Positions 5,144 to 37,457 of a stretch of DNA of 37,457 nt are shown in pieces; position 1 is the stretch's first letter; every line of letters starts with the position of its first letter. This DNA is from a bacterium (GTDB taxonomy: Bacteria > Bdellovibrionota_C > UBA2361 > OMII01), in NCBI GenBank assembly GCA_017853605.1, contig JAFMJG010000009.1:1-37457 (forward strand), given 5' to 3'. The position numbers were made by a program, and so were the translations under genes. Below the pieces are notes generated by a model. The model was not told the DNA's origin and ran no database searches. It saw only the letters and a list, made by a program, of their open reading frames with translations.

Positions 5144-7591
5144 ATGATGGCAACAAAGAAAGCTACAAAAGCGCCGCGCAAGACAAAGAGCCGCCAGGCT
5201 GCAGACCCAGAGCCCATTCCGGTGCCGGACACCCTCCCGGTGCTCGCCGCGAAGGACATGGTGCCCTTTCCCGGGGTCATGATGTCGCTGTACCTCAGCC
5301 GCCCAGCGAGCATCCGTGCCATGGAGGCAGCTATGGCGGGCGACCGGCTCGCCTTTATCGTGGCGCAGTCAAACGCGGACGCCGAGGATCCTAAGCCCCG
5401 AGATCTCTACAAAGTTGGTGTCGTCGCCCACGTGGTGCGGACCCTTCAGGTGTCTGATGGCCGGCACAAGGTGCTGCTGCAGGGTCTCGTGCGGGCCAAG
5501 GCGCGCAAGTACGAGACGAAGCACCGCTTCCCAGTGACCAAGATCTCTCCCCTTCCTGCGCCGCCGCTCCGCAAGCTCTCGGCCGAGAACCAGGCGATTA
5601 TGAACCGCATCCGGGAGAACCTGCAGGTGCTGGTCGAGTATGAGCACCTGCCCGAGGAGATGCTGATCGTTACCGAGGAGGTGCATGATCCCGGCGTCCT
5701 CTCGGACGTCGTCCTCGCGCACTACAAGATAGAGCTTCAGGACGCGCAGGCGGCGCTGGAGGAGCTTGATCCCCTCAAGCGGCTGCGGATGACCGATACG
5801 GCCATTACTGATGACCTAAACAAGTTCATCCTCACCGAGAAGATCAAGGACAAGGCCCGCGACGAGATGAGCAAGGGGCAGCGCGAGTACTACCTGCGCG
5901 AGCAGATAAAGCAGATCCAGCGCGAGCTCGGGGATGTTGACGTTGCCTCTGATGATCTCGTGGCGCTGCGCGATCGGCTGACAGCGCTTAACCTGCCCCC
6001 GCAGGCGAAAGAGGAGTCGTTTAAGCAGCTCAAGCGGCTTGAGCACATGAGCCCTGAGTCGAGCGAGTACGCGCTGCTTCGCACATACCTTGAGTGGGTG
6101 ACCGACCTTCCGTGGTCAACTCGGACCAAGGACCAGCTCGATCTGGTGAAGGCCAAAAAGGTGCTCGACGAGGATCACTTTGGGCTCGACAAGGTCAAGG
6201 ACCGCATCCTGGAGTACCTGAGCGTAAGGACGCTCAATCCAGGCTCCAAGGGCCCGATCCTCTGCTTCGTTGGGCCGCCGGGAGTCGGAAAAACGTCGCT
6301 TGGGAAGTCGATCGCCCGCGCCCTCGGCAGGAACTTCACCCGCATGTCGCTCGGCGGCATGCGAGATGAAGCCGAGATCCGCGGCCACCGGCGCACGTAC
6401 GTAGGGGCCCTTCCAGGCCGCATCCTGCAGGGGCTCAAGCAGGCAGGCTCCCGTAATCCTGTATTTGTGCTCGATGAGCTCGACAAGATCGGCGCTGACT
6501 TCCGCGGGGATCCAGCCTCGGCGCTCCTGGAGGTTCTCGATCCGCACCAAAACTCTGACTTTCGGGACCACTACCTAAACGTGCCGTACGACCTCTCGGA
6601 CGTGCTCTTTTTGGCCACGGCGAACACCGTCGACACGATCCCCGAGCCGCTCATCGACAGGCTCGAGATCCTCTTCATTCCGGGCTACACCGCTGCGGAG
6701 AAGCAGAAGATCGCAACGACGTACATCATCCCAAGGCAGCTTGCAGAGGCAGGCCTATCGGCGCAGAAGGTGCAGTTCACCGACGGGGCGATTGCGCTCG
6801 TCATTGAGCGCTACACCCGTGAGGCAGGGGTGCGGGGACTTGAGCGCGAAATAGGGGCGCTGTGCCGCAAGCTCGCCCGTGAGGTGGCAGAGTCCAAGAA
6901 GCTCACCAAAGTTATTGACGCGGACCGTGTGACACAGCTCCTCGGCCCCACCAAGTACGATCCCGAGATGACAGAGCAGCGCGAAGCCGTTGGGCTTGTG
7001 CGCGGCTTGGCGTGGACCTCCCTTGGCGGTGAGGTCATGCCGGTTGAGGTCTCGACCGCCAAGGGCACAGGCGGGCTTACCCTCACCGGGCAGCTCGGCA
7101 GTGTCATGCAGGAGTCCGCACAGGCGGCGCTGTTCTACGCGCGCGCAAACGCTGAGGTGCTTGGGCTTGAGCCCGACTTTCACTCCAAGCACGATATCCA
7201 CGTCCACGTGCCGGGCGGAGCGACGCCAAAGGACGGCCCCTCGGCCGGAATTACGATCGCCACCGCGCTTGTGTCAGCGCTCTCGGGGCGCAAAGTGTCG
7301 AAGGACATCGCCATGACGGGCGAGATGACGCTGCGCGGAAACATCCTTGCTGTGGGAGGCCTGCGCGAGAAGGCGCTGGCAGCGCTGCAGTACGGCATCC
7401 GCAAGGTGATCATCCCCTTTGAGAACATAAAAGATCTGGAGGAGATCCCAGAGGAGCAGCGCAAACAGATTCAGTTCATCCCCGTCAAGCACGTGAGCGA
7501 GGTCCTTGAGCTCGCCCTGCTTGGCCGGCGCAAAAAGCTGTCGGGCACCCGAAAGCGTGGCAAAGGTGGCGAGATCTCGGTCGGCCAGTAG
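5144..7591 (+). CDS. lon: ATP-dependent protease Lon
   Basis: Lon is the cytosolic hexameric AAA+ protease that degrades misfolded and regulatory proteins. The 815-residue length is typical of LonA. Residues about 25-215 form the N-terminal substrate-recognition domain (LPVLAAKDMVPFPGVMMSLY), followed by a coiled helical region (REYYLREQIKQIQRELGD). The AAA+ module has Walker A GPPGVGKT at 377-384 and Walker B VFVLDELDK. The protease domain has the catalytic dyad Ser700 (in PKDGPSAG) and Lys743 (in GGLREKAL); their 43-residue spacing matches E. coli S679/K722. A basic N-terminal tail (MMATKKATKAPRKTKS) is lineage-specific. Two ATG codons lie in tandem at 5144 and 5147; CGGGGA sits closer to ideal spacing for the second. 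The next gene begins four bases after the stop, suggesting co-transcription. Confidence 0.98.
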   Translation: MMATKKATKAPRKTKSRQAADPEPIPVPDTLPVLAAKDMVPFPGVMMSLYLSRPASIRAMEAAMAGDRLAFIVAQSNADAEDPKPRDLYKVGVVAHVVRTLQVSDGRHKVLLQGLVRAKARKYETKHRFPVTKISPLPAPPLRKLSAENQAIMNRIRENLQVLVEYEHLPEEMLIVTEEVHDPGVLSDVVLAHYKIELQDAQAALEELDPLKRLRMTDTAITDDLNKFILTEKIKDKARDEMSKGQREYYLREQIKQIQRELGDVDVASDDLVALRDRLTALNLPPQAKEESFKQLKRLEHMSPESSEYALLRTYLEWVTDLPWSTRTKDQLDLVKAKKVLDEDHFGLDKVKDRILEYLSVRTLNPGSKGPILCFVGPPGVGKTSLGKSIARALGRNFTRMSLGGMRDEAEIRGHRRTYVGALPGRILQGLKQAGSRNPVFVLDELDKIGADFRGDPASALLEVLDPHQNSDFRDHYLNVPYDLSDVLFLATANTVDTIPEPLIDRLEILFIPGYTAAEKQKIATTYIIPRQLAEAGLSAQKVQFTDGAIALVIERYTREAGVRGLEREIGALCRKLAREVAESKKLTKVIDADRVTQLLGPTKYDPEMTEQREAVGLVRGLAWTSLGGEVMPVEVSTAKGTGGLTLTGQLGSVMQESAQAALFYARANAEVLGLEPDFHSKHDIHVHVPGGATPKDGPSAGITIATALVSALSGRKVSKDIAMTGEMTLRGNILAVGGLREKALAALQYGIRKVIIPFENIKDLEEIPEEQRKQIQFIPVKHVSEVLELALLGRRKKLSGTRKRGKGGEISVGQ

Positions 7592-7595
7592 CGCG

Positions 7596-8576
7596 ATGCG
7601 CGGGGCGTTCCTTGCCCCCCTGGCCGCTCTCGCGCTGGCGGCGTCGGGAGTCGCGCAGGATCGTGGGTCCTGCCTCTACTTCGACGAGACCGGGTTTATT
7701 CGGCAGGCGCCCCGGCTGCAGGAGGTTCCGAGCCAGCACCGGGCCAAGGCGAAGTGCAGCTCCGGCGAGCCAGGCCAGATCCCTGAGCCGAGGAGCGTCG
7801 ATCTTGACGGTCCCGTCCGCTCGACATCCTTCCTGACCGACCTCGGCCGGATGCAGGTGCGGTGGCAGCGAAAGGTCGAGGAGTGCTTCGGCAAGAGCCC
7901 CTCGAAGGCGGTCCATGAGGCTGCGCGAGCATCCAACCGGGCCATCAAGAATGCGCGTTTCGCTCCCGAGGCGAGGCAGGAGAAGCGGGACTGGCAGCTC
8001 GTCTTCGTTGACAAGGCAACTGCCCTGGCGGAGTTTCCGGCCTTTATAGCGCTCGGCAGCCATCCAGGGTTCATGGTTCCGCCCAGCCAGATCTACATCG
8101 TGACAGACTTTATCCCAGGCAGCTGCGCCGGCTCGCAGGTTGCAGATGCGGTGCTGACGCAGGTGCTGCTCCATGAGATGGGGCACGTGGTGGAGCATAT
8201 GCTGCTCGGGGACGCCAGCTTTTCGCAGGATAGGCCCCGCAGCGAGGGGTTCGCCTCGTGGTTTGAGCAGTACAGCGCCGACTATGCGGGGGACATTCCG
8301 CGAGGTGAGGTGGTCCGGTACTACGATGGCCTTGCCCGAGAGGGCCTCGGCACCGAGTCGGTTGCGGCCTTCGATGGCTCTCCGCAGGCCTATGCAGTTT
8401 CAGCGCTGCGCTTCCGGGCGATCGTAGACCGCAAGGGTATCTCCGGCCTGATGCGGGTGTATGGGGCGATGCGTGGTACGGGGATTCCCTTCAGCCAGGC
8501 GGTTCATCAGGAGCTCGGATGGAGCGACGGGGCGCTCCACCGTGAGATGGCGAGGCTGCTCAAGCAGGGGCATTAA
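7596..8576 (+). CDS. Secreted zinc metallopeptidase-like protein (HExxH)
   Basis: The 326-residue product begins with a clear signal peptide (MRGAFLAPLAALALAASGVAQ). The key motif is LLHEMGHVVEH, giving HEMGH at residues 193-197. It is followed by SEGFASWFEQY with Glu217, 20 residues after the HExxH, the spacing of a gluzincin-type zinc site (HExxH plus downstream Glu). A metallopeptidase role outside the cytoplasm is therefore inferred; the substrate is unknown. The ORF track starts this frame at 7506, inside lon. I prefer ATG 7596 because it directly precedes the signal peptide and lies four bases past the lon stop, implying translational coupling. No strong Shine-Dalgarno is visible. No exact family is recognised. 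Confidence 0.75.
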   Translation: MRGAFLAPLAALALAASGVAQDRGSCLYFDETGFIRQAPRLQEVPSQHRAKAKCSSGEPGQIPEPRSVDLDGPVRSTSFLTDLGRMQVRWQRKVEECFGKSPSKAVHEAARASNRAIKNARFAPEARQEKRDWQLVFVDKATALAEFPAFIALGSHPGFMVPPSQIYIVTDFIPGSCAGSQVADAVLTQVLLHEMGHVVEHMLLGDASFSQDRPRSEGFASWFEQYSADYAGDIPRGEVVRYYDGLAREGLGTESVAAFDGSPQAYAVSALRFRAIVDRKGISGLMRVYGAMRGTGIPFSQAVHQELGWSDGALHREMARLLKQGH

Positions 8577-8729: not shown

Positions 8730-9551
8730 ATGGTGTTCTTCTCCAGAGCGGAGGGCTTGGTCCTGGGCGTTTGCTCAGCGCTCTTGATGCTTAGCTGTCC
8801 AGCGCTCGCCCAGAGCGGCCCAACGGTGCACTCGCCCGAGGCGATGATCGACTGCAAGGGGATAGAGAACGGAGCGAACCGCAAGGACAGCTACGGCGAC
8901 TGCTGCCTCCCGGGAGAGATGATTTACTGCGGGGCGTGCAAGGATCACCGGAGCTACTGCGAGAAGCAGACTAAGGTGTGCGGAACCACCACGACCGCCG
9001 ACAGAGCAGGCACGTGCTGTAACGACCATCCCAGCCCCTGCAACGACTGCGGAAGGCCCTCCTCTTCCATCAACTACTGCGAGAGGCAGACGGGGGTGTG
9101 CAACACCTCCGCTACGGCTGATAGCCGTGGCACCTGCTGCAGCAGCCATCCGAGCCCCTGCAACGACTGCAGTAGGCCGTCGCCGACGCAGTGTGAAACT
9201 GCACTCGGGGTGTGCGGAGCGCCAGCCCCGGATTCTGAAGGCAAATGCTGCCCCGACAGCCAAAAGCAGTGCGGCCGCTGCAGCGGATGTAGGGGGTGCA
9301 GGCTCAACTCGCATTGCCAGAACCCTGCCGGGGATCCGAAGTGCAACCCGGGCTACAGCGATCCGAACGCCTCCTGCCCTTACTCTTTCACTATCCCGCA
9401 CGGAAGCACGTTGTCGCGAATCCAGCACCTAGACCATGTGCAGGGCACAGGGTACCTGTGGTCATCAAACGTGGGCGGCGAGCTGCTCTCATGCTTCGGG
9501 CACTCGGTGTCCACGTGGCGGTGTAACGACGGCACGATGGTGCCCAATTAA
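8730..9551 (+). CDS. Secreted cysteine-rich repeat protein of unknown function
   Basis: The 273-residue product has a signal peptide (MVFFSRAEGLVLGVCSALLM...ALAQ). The mature part has about 30 cysteines, most in CC, CxxC and CxC patterns. Residues 76-115 and 115-154 are near-identical repeats of the form YCExQTxVC...GTCCxxHPSPCNDCxRPS. A degenerate third copy (CETALGVC...GKCC) follows, and a partial copy (YGDCCLPGEMIYCGAC) precedes them. The C-terminal 60 residues (YSFTIPHGSTLSRIQH...) are cysteine-poorer. Right after the signal peptide is PTVHSPEAMIDCKGI, which recurs in the next gene. A disulfide-rich extracellular protein, or a metal-binding one, is plausible. I recognise no family and assign no function. 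Confidence 0.75.
   Translation: MVFFSRAEGLVLGVCSALLMLSCPALAQSGPTVHSPEAMIDCKGIENGANRKDSYGDCCLPGEMIYCGACKDHRSYCEKQTKVCGTTTTADRAGTCCNDHPSPCNDCGRPSSSINYCERQTGVCNTSATADSRGTCCSSHPSPCNDCSRPSPTQCETALGVCGAPAPDSEGKCCPDSQKQCGRCSGCRGCRLNSHCQNPAGDPKCNPGYSDPNASCPYSFTIPHGSTLSRIQHLDHVQGTGYLWSSNVGGELLSCFGHSVSTWRCNDGTMVPN
8955..9281 (+). repeat. In-frame tandem repeats (about 40 codons) encoding Cys modules
   Basis: Units start at 8955, 9075 and 9192. The 18-base core AGCCCCTGCAACGACTGC occurs identically at 9033-9050 and 9153-9170, exactly 120 bases apart. The third unit has diverged. Identity between the first two units points to recent internal duplication. Confidence 0.8.
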
Positions 9552-9689
9552 GACAGGTTGGCGACCGGGCAGCGGCGTGGGCACTAAGAGCTCTCCGTAG
9601 GCTGATTTGCCCTTGTTTCGCCCCTTTGCGAGAATTCCTTGGATGTTAGGCCAGTGCCAAGAGCAGGGATGGTGCGCTTTTTTTGTAAT

Positions 9690-9716
9690 TTGAAGATCTC
9701 TCGCCTGTGCTAAAAT
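9690..9716 (+). promoter_or_regulatory. Possible extended -10 promoter for the 9764 gene
   Basis: TGCTAAAAT (9708-9716) is an extended -10 element; TTGAAG lies 15 bases upstream of the hexamer. A T7 run at 9678-9684 lies just before it, and its upstream sequence forms only a weak hairpin, so termination of the previous gene there is uncertain. Nothing else was seen in the 212-base gap. Confidence 0.45.
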
Positions 9717-9763
9717 GAAGAAAGCTGTTTGTCGTGCTTAGGTTGTACAGGCGGTAGGAAAGG

Positions 9764-11074
9764 ATGAAACTCAGAGCGGTCTTTGTAGCCCTCTACCCGG
9801 TTGGGCTCTCCCTTGCGCTTATTTGCCTAGTGCTCCTCCCTTCAATAGGGGCCTCCCAGGGCTCCGACGAGCCAAGCGTTGGCAGCCCAGAGTCGATGAT
9901 AGGGTGCGATGGCATCCACGATAGCGGGGCGGTTGACGAGGGGTGTGGATGTGGCGAGCCGCCTCCGCACTTCCCCTTCGTGTGCGACCCTTGCATTCCG
10001 GACGAGGACTGCCCAAACATTGAGCCCTCGGTCACACCCACGCCTCCTCCGCCGGCGACCGCCACTGCAACCCCCGTCGACACGCCGATCCCCACTGCAA
10101 CCCCTGTGAATACGCCGACCCAAACGAGCACCCCCATCTTCACAGGCACGCCGACCTTGACGGCGACCGTTACCAATTCGCCAACCGGTACCCTGCCGGC
10201 TACCGGCACTGCAACGGCCACGCCGGTTAGCACCTCCACCAGCACCGCAACGGCTCCGCCGACAAAGACCCCAACGCCTGGACCCCTGAAAGCGATCCTC
10301 ACGGTGCGGGGCACCTACCGCAGGCTAGTGACTTCGGGCCTCGTGGTGGGGAGTCACTACACGTTAGGAAATAATCCGAACGACATCGCTGCCCGCATAG
10401 ACGATCCCGCGCTTGGATTCGCGAGGACTCAGGTTGATGTTGTTGGCAGCGGGGGCAGGGGTGCGGCATCTCCGGCACCGCAACCGGTGCGCGCGGTTCC
10501 GAATAGCTGCTCGTTCAGCAACCTGACCGTTACGTGGTCTTCCGAGGCGGCGGAGTCGTGCACGCTCGTCACTTCGCCGGCTATCAGGGGGCTGCACAAT
10601 ACCGTCGCCACTTCAGGTTCAGTGACGCTGCCCGGGCCGTTTTCGAGGGGCTATACATTTGCGCTGCACTGCGGTCGTGGGAGCGAAAGAGCTCGAGCGA
10701 GGGTAGATGTGCAGGTACAAGACACCACGTTTGAGACCAACGACCGCCCTATGATGAGCGCGGCCTTCGGCACGAACTCTCAGGGGGGAATCGGCATTAC
10801 GGCAAACAACGACACAGAGATCTCAAGACACCTCGCGCGTGCCTGCCGGAACCTGGGCTACGATCGGGCAGTGGGGTATGGGCTCTACAACGAGGGCTTT
10901 ACGAGCCCGGGCAACAACACAAACTGCTGGATCGCAGACAGGGCGCCGCGCACTGGAGCCATCGTGGTGCCGGCGGGAGCCTACCACGTGGCGGGCACCG
11001 ACATCGTGTGCAAGAACGCGAAGGCTAACGGCAATCCTCGCTACATCGGCAACTTCAAGTGCGCGTGCAACTAA
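9764..11074 (+). CDS. Secreted Thr/Pro-linker protein with an Ig-like segment, unknown function
   Basis: The 436-residue product starts at ATG 9764 behind AGGAAAGG and has a signal peptide ending near GASQG. Residues 37-48 (PSVGSPESMIGC) repeat the post-signal motif of the preceding cysteine-rich protein. A short Cys segment (CGCGEPPPHFPFVCDPCIP) follows. Then comes an about 85-residue linker of TATPVNTPTQT type, an extended spacer common in surface proteins. Residues about 235-330 (TVTWSSEAAESCTLV...YTFALHCGRGSERARARVDVQV) resemble a bacterial Ig-like domain with one disulfide. The C-terminal 110 residues, with several Cys and ending NFKCACN, are not recognised. A surface or matrix role is inferred from architecture only. 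It is tandem with the cysteine-rich gene but has its own likely promoter. Confidence 0.75.
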   Translation: MKLRAVFVALYPVGLSLALICLVLLPSIGASQGSDEPSVGSPESMIGCDGIHDSGAVDEGCGCGEPPPHFPFVCDPCIPDEDCPNIEPSVTPTPPPPATATATPVDTPIPTATPVNTPTQTSTPIFTGTPTLTATVTNSPTGTLPATGTATATPVSTSTSTATAPPTKTPTPGPLKAILTVRGTYRRLVTSGLVVGSHYTLGNNPNDIAARIDDPALGFARTQVDVVGSGGRGAASPAPQPVRAVPNSCSFSNLTVTWSSEAAESCTLVTSPAIRGLHNTVATSGSVTLPGPFSRGYTFALHCGRGSERARARVDVQVQDTTFETNDRPMMSAAFGTNSQGGIGITANNDTEISRHLARACRNLGYDRAVGYGLYNEGFTSPGNNTNCWIADRAPRTGAIVVPAGAYHVAGTDIVCKNAKANGNPRYIGNFKCACN

Positions 11075-35885: not shown

Positions 35886-37457
35886 ATGGGGGAGTTGCCA
35901 GCGGTTGTCCGCGCATTCCTTGCCTTCGCGTGCTTGTCCTGTTTCGGCGCAGCGGCCCATGCAGACAGCGTAAGCCCCTACCGGGCTCCTCTGTCGACAC
36001 GTGGAATAGAGGCGGCGCTCCGCACGCACTCGCGCTCACCTGAATCTGAGGCAATTTCTCCCGTCCGCATCCATGGCAGGGTCTTTGGCGCGGGCAACAT
36101 TGATGTTCGCTTCTCGCGGCGGCAGGGCAGGGCATGGCCAGCGGTCATCACTCGAAACGGCAAGCAGGTGCCCGATCCGATCTCGCCAGTCCTGCTGCGC
36201 GGCGGCGTGGCTTTCGGCGGGAGCCTCCGCATGGCCGGCAGGCGCACAATGCCTTCCGCCGGCTACATTGTTGGCAACACGCTCAGGATAACTTTCGCGG
36301 GCCGGGCGCGAGGCTCACGCAAGAACCGGCAGCGCATTTACACTATTACGATGCGGCTGGACGGCTCGATCGTTATCGAGGCGAAGGTTGCCAGCATTCC
36401 GCGCTCTGCCGTGCGCCGCGGTGCATGCGGCGCGCCCACGGCGAGGGCTTCTTCCCCGATCCATGCCTTTGGGGATGCAGAGATCGTCAAGCCGCTGGGG
36501 GATGATCCTGGCGCCGCGGACACCGAGAGCGCCCGAGTGGTCACGCTAAGCACCGACGCGGATCCAGAGTGGTACGCCCGGTACGGAGAGGAGAGCAACG
36601 CCGTCATTGCGGGGCTGGTGAACGCGGGAGAGGCGATTTACGCCCGCCAGCTCGGCATGCGCTTTCGGATCGTCAAGCAGCACGCGTATGCGGACGGGTC
36701 CCCGTACACCTCGACCGACGCGCTAAAGATCCTGAGCGCCTTCACCTCGAACCCGGAGAACGCCGCCAACCTCTCCGATGCCCCACGCAGCTTCAACCAG
36801 GACGTGGACATCAAGCACCTGTTCACGGGCAAGGACATAGACGGCACAATCATCGGAATCGCGTACATCGGCGTGGTGTGCTCGTCGCCCACCCTGGCGT
36901 ACGGAGTCACGTCGCACTACGTTGATGCGGCTGACTTTGCGATCTTTGCCCATGAGGTGGGGCACAACTTTGGCGCGAACCATGACTCCACGACCGCCGG
37001 GACGCTGATGTATCCCAGCATCTCGATCCCTCCCGCAGAGAGGCTGTCCGACATTAGCCTCAAGGAGATGAATGAGCACTTCATCGACTACGGCTCGTGC
37101 GTCTCAGTTGAGCAGGTGGCACCGCGCCCGGACTTGACGCCAGGCTACCCGACCCCGACGCCTCCTCCAGATGGCCCAGACCTGAACACCGTGATCATCC
37201 GCATCAAAAAGACACGAGTTGGGGACCCACGGGATCCGGTTGTGCGTGTTTCAGGGCGCGTGCTTTCCGCAGCCGGCGCGCCCTTGCCGGGGGTGTCGAT
37301 TCGGCTCTACGCGGCTGGCGAGACCGTGGATGACATCGTGAGCGACAGCGCGGGGAGCTTCCGTTACTTCGTCAGGCTCTCGATGCCGCAGAAGCGCCAG
37401 ATCTACCTGTGGGCTGAGACCATGGGAGGGGAGGTGTACTCAAACTTCATCTGGCTC
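35886..37457 (+). CDS. Secreted M12-type (metzincin) zinc metalloprotease, 3' end beyond the window
   Basis: The ORF track misses this because the frame runs off the end; it is open for 524 codons from ATG 35886, behind GGGGGTGAAG. A signal peptide is likely (VRAFLAFACLSCFGAAAHA). A propeptide-like region of about 200 residues follows. The catalytic domain contains HEVGHNFGANHD at 356-367, the metzincin zinc site, and TLMYPSIS as the Met-turn. Together they match adamalysin/reprolysin-like M12B peptidases. After a Pro/Thr linker (GYPTPTPPPDGPD) comes a start of a carboxypeptidase-regulatory or Cna-B-like beta domain (VRVSGRVLSAAGAPLPGVSI). The substrate is unknown. No Cys-switch can be assigned with confidence, though a Cys lies in RRGACGAPT of the pro-region. 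Confidence 0.88.
   Translation, partial: MGELPAVVRAFLAFACLSCFGAAAHADSVSPYRAPLSTRGIEAALRTHSRSPESEAISPVRIHGRVFGAGNIDVRFSRRQGRAWPAVITRNGKQVPDPISPVLLRGGVAFGGSLRMAGRRTMPSAGYIVGNTLRITFAGRARGSRKNRQRIYTITMRLDGSIVIEAKVASIPRSAVRRGACGAPTARASSPIHAFGDAEIVKPLGDDPGAADTESARVVTLSTDADPEWYARYGEESNAVIAGLVNAGEAIYARQLGMRFRIVKQHAYADGSPYTSTDALKILSAFTSNPENAANLSDAPRSFNQDVDIKHLFTGKDIDGTIIGIAYIGVVCSSPTLAYGVTSHYVDAADFAIFAHEVGHNFGANHDSTTAGTLMYPSISIPPAERLSDISLKEMNEHFIDYGSCVSVEQVAPRPDLTPGYPTPTPPPDGPDLNTVIIRIKKTRVGDPRDPVVRVSGRVLSAAGAPLPGVSIRLYAAGETVDDIVSDSAGSFRYFVRLSMPQKRQIYLWAETMGGEVYSNFIWL

What the first reader, a model, noticed from the sequence alone, without database searches (positions are those of the whole stretch)
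8820..9920. Two neighbouring secreted proteins share a motif immediately after the signal peptide
The cysteine-rich protein has PTVHSPEAMIDCKGI right after its signal peptide, and the next gene has PSVGSPESMIGCDGI at the same place. The consensus is P[ST]VxSPE[AS]MIxCxGI. Outside this the two proteins look unrelated (Cys repeats against a Thr/Pro linker plus Ig-like segment), and the codons differ. Conservation only at the mature N-terminus suggests a sorting, processing or anchoring signal, perhaps using the single Cys, for a family of surface proteins in this lineage.
Basis: partly seen in the sequence, partly recalled or inferred. Interest (0 to 1): 0.65.

Follow-up and report, generated by a model that had tools for sequence, protein, structure and literature searches.

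The report
Mature-N-terminal tag on mosaic secreted proteins
Otherwise different secreted proteins in a group of uncultured bacteria carry the same three-residue tag (Ser-Pro-Glu) just behind the signal peptide, and one sub-clade has replaced it in all 13 of its sampled proteins with another tag, which points to a shared docking or export signal, possibly for pilus tips.

Summary
Its core is [S/G]PE, usually followed by x-hydrophobic, 5-13 residues after signal-peptide cleavage. About 33 secreted proteins of the class carry it, six in the window's own genome.

The two window proteins are not wholly unrelated: a short Cys-rich module follows the motif in both, and domains are shuffled among relatives. 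But homology of that module does not explain the motif. In proteins recruited only through C-terminal domains, 19 of 27 from the SPE-bearing species of the genus have [S/G]PE near the mature N-terminus (shuffled mean 1.04, 0/20,000). The rest of all 60 sampled proteins holds 4 copies in 25,947 residues. The motif persists ahead of unrelated sequence and without Cys. A well-supported sub-clade has none; 13 of 13 of its proteins start QxxxE instead.

I read this as a docking/secretion tag tuned to a clade-specific partner. The best candidate partner is the Tad (Flp) pilus tip: TadG-like genes lie directly upstream of family genes in three genomes, one family protein has a TadE-like N-terminus, and the window's genome encodes a Flp pilin and RcpC. 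TcpF/CofJ of type IVb pili work this way. No function was shown here.

The parts
8730..8810 (+). ORF1 signal peptide (27 aa, ...SCPALA|Q)
   Evidence: sequence; type I-like signal peptide by a hand-made rule; no SignalP available
8820..8864 (+). ORF1 motif PTVHSPEAMIDCKGI; SPE core at 8832-8840
   Evidence: codons
8853..9290 (+). ORF1 Cys-rich modules (approximate end)
   Evidence: paralogue in own genome C218 is 88% identical over the 40 residues after SPE
9345..9548 (+). ORF1 C-terminal 'type A' domain
   Evidence: profile A5: 13 hits in 6 genomes of this genus only; no Pfam or convincing PDB match
9764..9856 (+). ORF2 signal peptide (cleavage about SIGAS|Q)
   Evidence: sequence; helix 4-23 in the model
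9872..9916 (+). ORF2 motif PSVGSPESMIGCDGI; SPE core at 9884-9892
   Evidence: codons
9899..10012 (+). ORF2 short Cys-rich module (C.GI..GCGCG.PPP..C..C)
   Evidence: profile A1 and alignment
10019..10280 (+). ORF2 Thr/Pro-rich linker
   Evidence: sequence
10511..10729 (+). ORF2 beta-rich, possibly Ig-like segment
   Evidence: five strands in a low-confidence model (pLDDT about 55-60)
10733..11071 (+). ORF2 C-terminal 'type B' domain
   Evidence: profile A6: 10 hits in 6 genomes of this genus only; no PDB relative

Best explanation
The shared motif is the core of a short N-terminal docking/secretion tag ([S/G]PE, usually followed by x-hydrophobic; QxxxE in one sub-clade). It sits in the flexible first 5-13 residues of the mature protein, after Sec export and signal-peptidase cleavage. 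A common partner outside the inner membrane recognises it and then exports or displays the client, whose variable C-terminal part does the binding. The most likely partner is the tip complex (TadE/F/G minor pilins) of a Tad/Flp pilus, in the way type IVb pili secrete TcpF and CofJ by binding their mature N-terminus. Shown here: motif, position, enrichment, unrelated clients, clade-wide switch, Tad gene linkage in other families of the class, Flp pilin and RcpC in the own genome. Inferred: that a partner exists (about 0.7) and that it is Tad (about 0.4).
For: Six motif genes in the own genome, only two of them in the window, and more in seven other genomes of the genus and in three other families of the class. 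N-termini of proteins recruited by C-terminal domain alone: 19/27 with [S/G]PE, shuffled mean 1.04, 0/20,000; beyond mature residue 40 of all 60 sampled proteins only 4 in 25,947 residues. The motif is kept ahead of unrelated sequences (L006, L101, L189, L193, L199, L292). Spacing from SPE to the first Cys repeat varies from 3 to 12 residues while the distance to the signal peptide stays short. Clade G001+G008+G009 (Lon tree, 100/99 support): 0/13 SPE, 13/13 QxxxE, E5 shuffled mean 0.87, 0/20,000. Hint-domain proteins follow the host's code: SPE in G010 and G033, QxxxE in G008. A QxxxE profile matches nothing in the own genome. Tad: TadG-like gene directly upstream of a type C gene in G042:C83 (gap about 24 bp), G033:C306 and G036:C62; TadE/TadG-like genes beside SPE genes on G033 C170, C67 and C300; a TadE-like N-terminus on the G016 type C protein; Flp pilin (E 1.4e-10) and RcpC/CpaB (E 2.1e-20) in the own genome. 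Precedent: TcpF and CofJ (PMC9565799).
Against: No partner was identified and no experiment done. No Tad gene lies beside SPE genes in the own genus. Most tagged proteins also carry Cys-rich modules, so a structural role of SPE as a helix N-cap is not excluded. Paralogues are not independent. Cleavage sites were assigned by hand. G001 and G008 carry Cys repeats and type C domains without SPE. Outside the genus only 4/20 type C proteins have the exact motif (shuffled mean 0.85; 147/20,000).
Confidence: 0.5

Rival explanations
1. Ordinary homology: the proteins are paralogues that kept the start of a small Cys-rich module while C-terminal domains were exchanged. SPE is the N-cap of the module's first helix and has no recognition role.
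For: Most SPE proteins continue with C-x-G-[VI] and GCGCG repeats; ORF1 and C218 align over the whole N-terminal half; SPE is a favourable helix N-cap sequence (general knowledge).
Against: SPE is kept where the module is missing or replaced (L189, L101, L193, L199, G006_C172, G017_C1, G035_C67). No SPE precedes the second and third module copies of C170_G033. Serine is encoded by both TCN and AGC codons in the own genome and signal peptides share only 17-47% identity. It does not explain the clade-wide switch to QxxxE.
Confidence: 0.25
2. The motif is a processing or anchoring site: a dedicated protease or transpeptidase cuts or modifies at SPE, as plasmepsin V does at PEXEL or exosortases do at PEP-CTERM.
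For: Short near-invariant motif, shared by otherwise different secreted proteins, clade-specific spelling.
Against: No hydrophobic or charged tail of the PEP-CTERM or LPXTG type and no candidate enzyme found. A cut there would remove only the first few mature residues.
Confidence: 0.12
3. Gene conversion or 5'-end shuffling spreads one leader sequence among secreted genes, so the motif is a passenger.
For: Several members per genome; type A and type B genes lie next to or near each other (window, G002:C97, G007:C164).
Against: No DNA similarity upstream of the motif between the six own-genome genes: best local scores 8-14, i.e. noise; SPE codons differ.
Confidence: 0.05
4. The single Cys after the motif is the functional residue (lipid or disulphide anchor).
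For: A Cys follows in most members, including both window proteins.
Against: No lipobox at the cleavage site by inspection; G006_C172, G017_C1 and G035_C67 have the motif with no nearby Cys.
Confidence: 0.03

Closest known systems
[quoted passage not shown]
   Same: First ~15 residues after signal-peptide cleavage of soluble secreted proteins; key residue at about +5 to +10; motif differs between clades and is not cross-recognised; the client gene is linked to the pilus operon; client globular domains differ.
   Different: Known cases have one client per system and depend on an aromatic residue. Here there are many clients per genome, the core is SPE or QxxxE, and the candidate machine is a Tad (type IVc) pilus. 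Binding not shown.
Tad pili with interchangeable TadEFG 'Tips' (PMC12075869)
   Same: TadE/F/G-type genes linked to variable, Cys-rich surface proteins; a TadE-like helix on one type C protein (G016).
   Different: Kil tips are themselves minor pilins with class III leaders; the SPE proteins have ordinary signal peptides and a separate tag.
Lipoprotein export signal (LES) of Bacteroidetes (PMC5080379)
   Same: Short acidic N-terminal motif right after cleavage, shared by unrelated surface proteins.
   Different: LES proteins are lipoproteins and the motif adjoins the lipidated Cys; these are not lipoproteins and the motif is SPE.
PEXEL of Plasmodium (PMC4077696)
   Same: N-terminal export motif downstream of a signal sequence on many unrelated proteins; includes an acidic residue.
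   Different: Eukaryotic, RxLxE/Q/D, cleaved by plasmepsin V; no cleavage shown here.
PEP-CTERM/EpsH and GlyGly-CTERM sorting systems (PMC1569441, PMC3237569)
   Same: Short terminal homology region shared by otherwise unrelated secreted proteins, several per genome.
   Different: C-terminal, with a transmembrane helix and basic tail; here N-terminal without either.
FrpC self-processing module (PDB 6sjx, PMC7078468)
   Same: The type C domain of many family members matches it (E 7.6e-16).
   Different: The scissile Asp is Ser or Thr in 46 of 47 readable copies, Cys in one, so the Asp-anhydride reaction is not expected; found in relatives, not in ORF1 or ORF2.

Membership tests
Type IVb/c pilus N-terminal secretion signal | motif in first ~15 residues of a signal-peptide-cleaved, non-pilin secreted protein | tested here: met
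Type IVb/c pilus N-terminal secretion signal | clade-specific motif | tested here: met
   SPE against QxxxE
Type IVb/c pilus N-terminal secretion signal | client gene in or next to the pilus minor-pilin operon | tested here: inconclusive
   met in G033, G042, G036 but not seen in the window's genus
Type IVb/c pilus N-terminal secretion signal | mature N-terminus binds the minor pilin and is needed for secretion | not testable with these tools
   needs biochemistry
Type IVb/c pilus N-terminal secretion signal | conserved aromatic key residue (Tyr5/Phe10) | tested here: not met
   position after SPE-x is F/W/Y in some members only; QxxxE clade has none
Lipoprotein export signal (LES) | lipobox Cys at +1 followed by K-(D/E)2 or Q-A-(D/E)2 | tested here: not met
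   mature residue +1 is Q, E, G, A, S or D, no lipobox by inspection
PEP-CTERM/exosortase | C-terminal PEP, transmembrane helix, basic tail | tested here: not met
   C-termini read in full, none
Type IV pilin / class III leader | prepilin site followed by hydrophobic helix with Glu5 | tested here: not met
   hydrophobic stretch precedes cleavage; nothing hydrophobic follows E
FrpC self-processing module (type C relatives only) | sequence similarity to SPM | tested here: met
   6sjx E 7.6e-16
FrpC self-processing module (type C relatives only) | scissile Asp-Pro | tested here: not met
   S/T/C-Pro in all 47 readable copies

The most novel reading that the evidence does not exclude
A Tad (type IVc) pilus secretion/docking signal that serves a whole repertoire of interchangeable, unrelated client proteins per cell, with a tag code that one clade has rewritten across the sampled repertoire together with its receptor.
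Probability: 0.35. Interest if true: 0.85.

Novelty: new variant of a known kind. Interest (0 to 1): 0.68.

Why it matters
It would extend N-terminal, post-signal-peptide secretion signals from single type IVb clients to a many-client system. It would also give a sequence handle for listing surface or pilus-tip proteins in an uncultured lineage whose domains Pfam and NCBIfam do not recognise. The clade-wide change of code makes receptor-tag co-evolution directly testable by comparing TadE/F/G (or any rival partner) between the two code groups.

Tried and rejected
Degenerate scan of GTDB genomes for SPE-x3-DC-x-G-[VIM]-x2-G: 24 stretches, only five hits on four stretches follow a signal peptide, all from two MAGs of the same genus; the rest are unrelated genes or wrong frames. 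The search for related loci with ORF1 found nothing. No phage match for ORF1, no plasmid match for ORF2. No Pfam or NCBIfam family for ORF1 or ORF2. AlphaFold of ORF2 alone is poor (mean pLDDT 39), so no fold search was run. The window locus is not syntenic across the genus; only G002 has an ORF2 orthologue downstream of Lon.

Full report
Observation. The SPE codons differ, TCG CCC GAG against AGC CCA GAG. The proteins are not wholly unrelated: the ~28 residues after the motif are 36% identical and belong to a small Cys-rich module, although BLASTP reports only signal peptide plus motif (E 8e-4).

Extent. A 30-residue query found a third gene in the own genome. Profiles then gave six in all: the two in the window, C218 (a close paralogue of ORF1), C185, C128 and C219 (frameshifted). 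G002, G003, G004, G006, G007, G010 and G011 of the same genus have more, as do G017, G033 and G035 in other families of the class. The aligned core is [S/G]PE, mostly followed by x-hydrophobic, usually 5-13 residues after the inferred cleavage site; L193 has it at +23. Mature proteins of the family often start with Gln, against 2 of 35 signal-peptide-like ORFs in samples of two genomes (the sampler is crude).

Not simply a module start. Relatives mix at least three C-terminal domains behind these N-termini: type A (ORF1), type B (ORF2) and type C. Type C matches the FrpC self-processing module (6sjx, E 7.6e-16) but with Ser, Thr or Cys in place of the scissile Asp. Others carry Hint-like domains (weak Pfam matches), CCG repeats (L101) or giant Cys-rich regions (L193, 3089-codon frame). 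A protein from G011 combines an ORF1-like N-terminus with an ORF2-like C-terminus (L005). SPE persists where the Cys module is gone (L189, an ORF2 orthologue in G002) or where a Thr/Pro-type linker follows directly (G006_C172, G017_C1, G035_C67).

Test without selection on the motif. I collected proteins by their C-terminal domains only (types A, B, C) and read their N-termini. In the SPE-bearing species of the genus 19 of 27 have [S/G]PE within 30 residues of cleavage (within-segment shuffles: mean 1.04, none of 20,000 reach 19). Seven of the eight exceptions have the type A or B domain directly behind the signal peptide; the eighth is G004_C329. Beyond residue 40 the 60 sampled mature proteins contain 4 [S/G]PE in 25,947 residues. 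Limits: paralogues are not independent and cleavage sites were set by hand.

Clade-wide switch. A Lon tree puts G009, G008 and G001 in one clade (100/99) nested among SPE species. Their 13 sampled proteins have no SPE, and all 13 begin Q-x-x-x-E (E5 shuffled mean 0.87, 0/20,000). This covers a type A protein and type C proteins. A profile of this N-terminus also found a Hint-domain protein and two further different proteins in the clade, and nothing in the own genome. Hint proteins carry SPE in G010 and G033 but QxxxE in G008. G021 (3 proteins, QGG[GS][TV]EG) and G038 (7 proteins, SE without Pro) look like further variants, noticed after the fact and untested. A coordinated change across unrelated proteins is hard to explain by module structure and is expected if one partner reads the tag.

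Candidate partner. In other families of the class, TadG-like genes lie directly upstream of type C genes (G042:C83, gap about 24 bp; G033:C306; G036:C62), TadE/TadG-like genes lie beside SPE genes on three G033 contigs, and the G016 type C protein starts with a TadE-like helix. The Pfam match is clear for G042:C83; C306 and C62 were called by BLAST similarity to the G033 TadG-like proteins. The own genome has a Flp pilin and RcpC/CpaB on C177, but no Tad gene was seen beside its SPE genes. Type IVb pili secrete TcpF and CofJ by binding their mature N-terminal residues to a tip minor pilin, with clade-specific motifs (PMC9565799), and Tad pili can carry exchangeable tips (PMC12075869). I therefore rate a Tad docking/secretion signal as the most likely reading (about 0.4), inside a broader claim of a recognised N-terminal tag (about 0.7).

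Lineage. G007 and G002 correspond to the MAGs AM_0240 and ZE-3nov15-121, labelled Proteobacteria and Deltaproteobacteria. Class and phylum searches return the same 46 genomes.

Noticed in passing
L077 (G000:C219, - strand, about 5188-5358): Own-genome SPE gene is interrupted by a frameshift after the motif; the Cys-rich part continues in another frame (sequencing error or pseudogene).
   Followed up: partly
L090, L199, L387: Hint-like domains at the C-terminus of tagged secreted proteins; the proteins in L090 and L199 share a neighbouring gene of unknown function.
   Followed up: partly
type C proteins, 52 matches in 16 genomes: FrpC-SPM-like Ca-binding domain, abundant in this class, with the scissile Asp replaced by Ser or Thr (Cys once).
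   Followed up: yes
L344 15859-19701 - (G000:C105): 1281-codon frame with multihaem cytochrome and LVIVD-repeat matches and GSPEVMR near its mature N-terminus; chance or another tagged protein.
   Followed up: no
window 35886-37457 +: Secreted M12B reprolysin-like metallopeptidase cut by the window end, with RSPES about 26 residues after the signal peptide; probably chance.
   Followed up: no
window 7596-8573 +: Secreted protein with HEMGH (weak SprT-like match), conserved directly downstream of Lon in ten of the twelve genomes of the genus (own included).
   Followed up: partly
L190, L191, L195, L196, L197: Type A or B domain directly after the signal peptide, followed by CxDGxDNDGDGxxDL repeats and no SPE: a second architecture.
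   Followed up: partly
L086 2-1044 and L081 1168-5636: Type A and type B genes lie side by side in G002 and about 3 kb apart in G007, at loci other than the window's.
   Followed up: partly
G021 and G038 type C proteins: Other candidate tag spellings: QGG[GS][TV]EG (3 of 3) and SE without Pro (7 of 7).
   Followed up: no
L267, L271 (G035): SPED/GPED inside proteins between an upstream beta-rich part and a Ser/Pro linker, not at the N-terminus.
   Followed up: no
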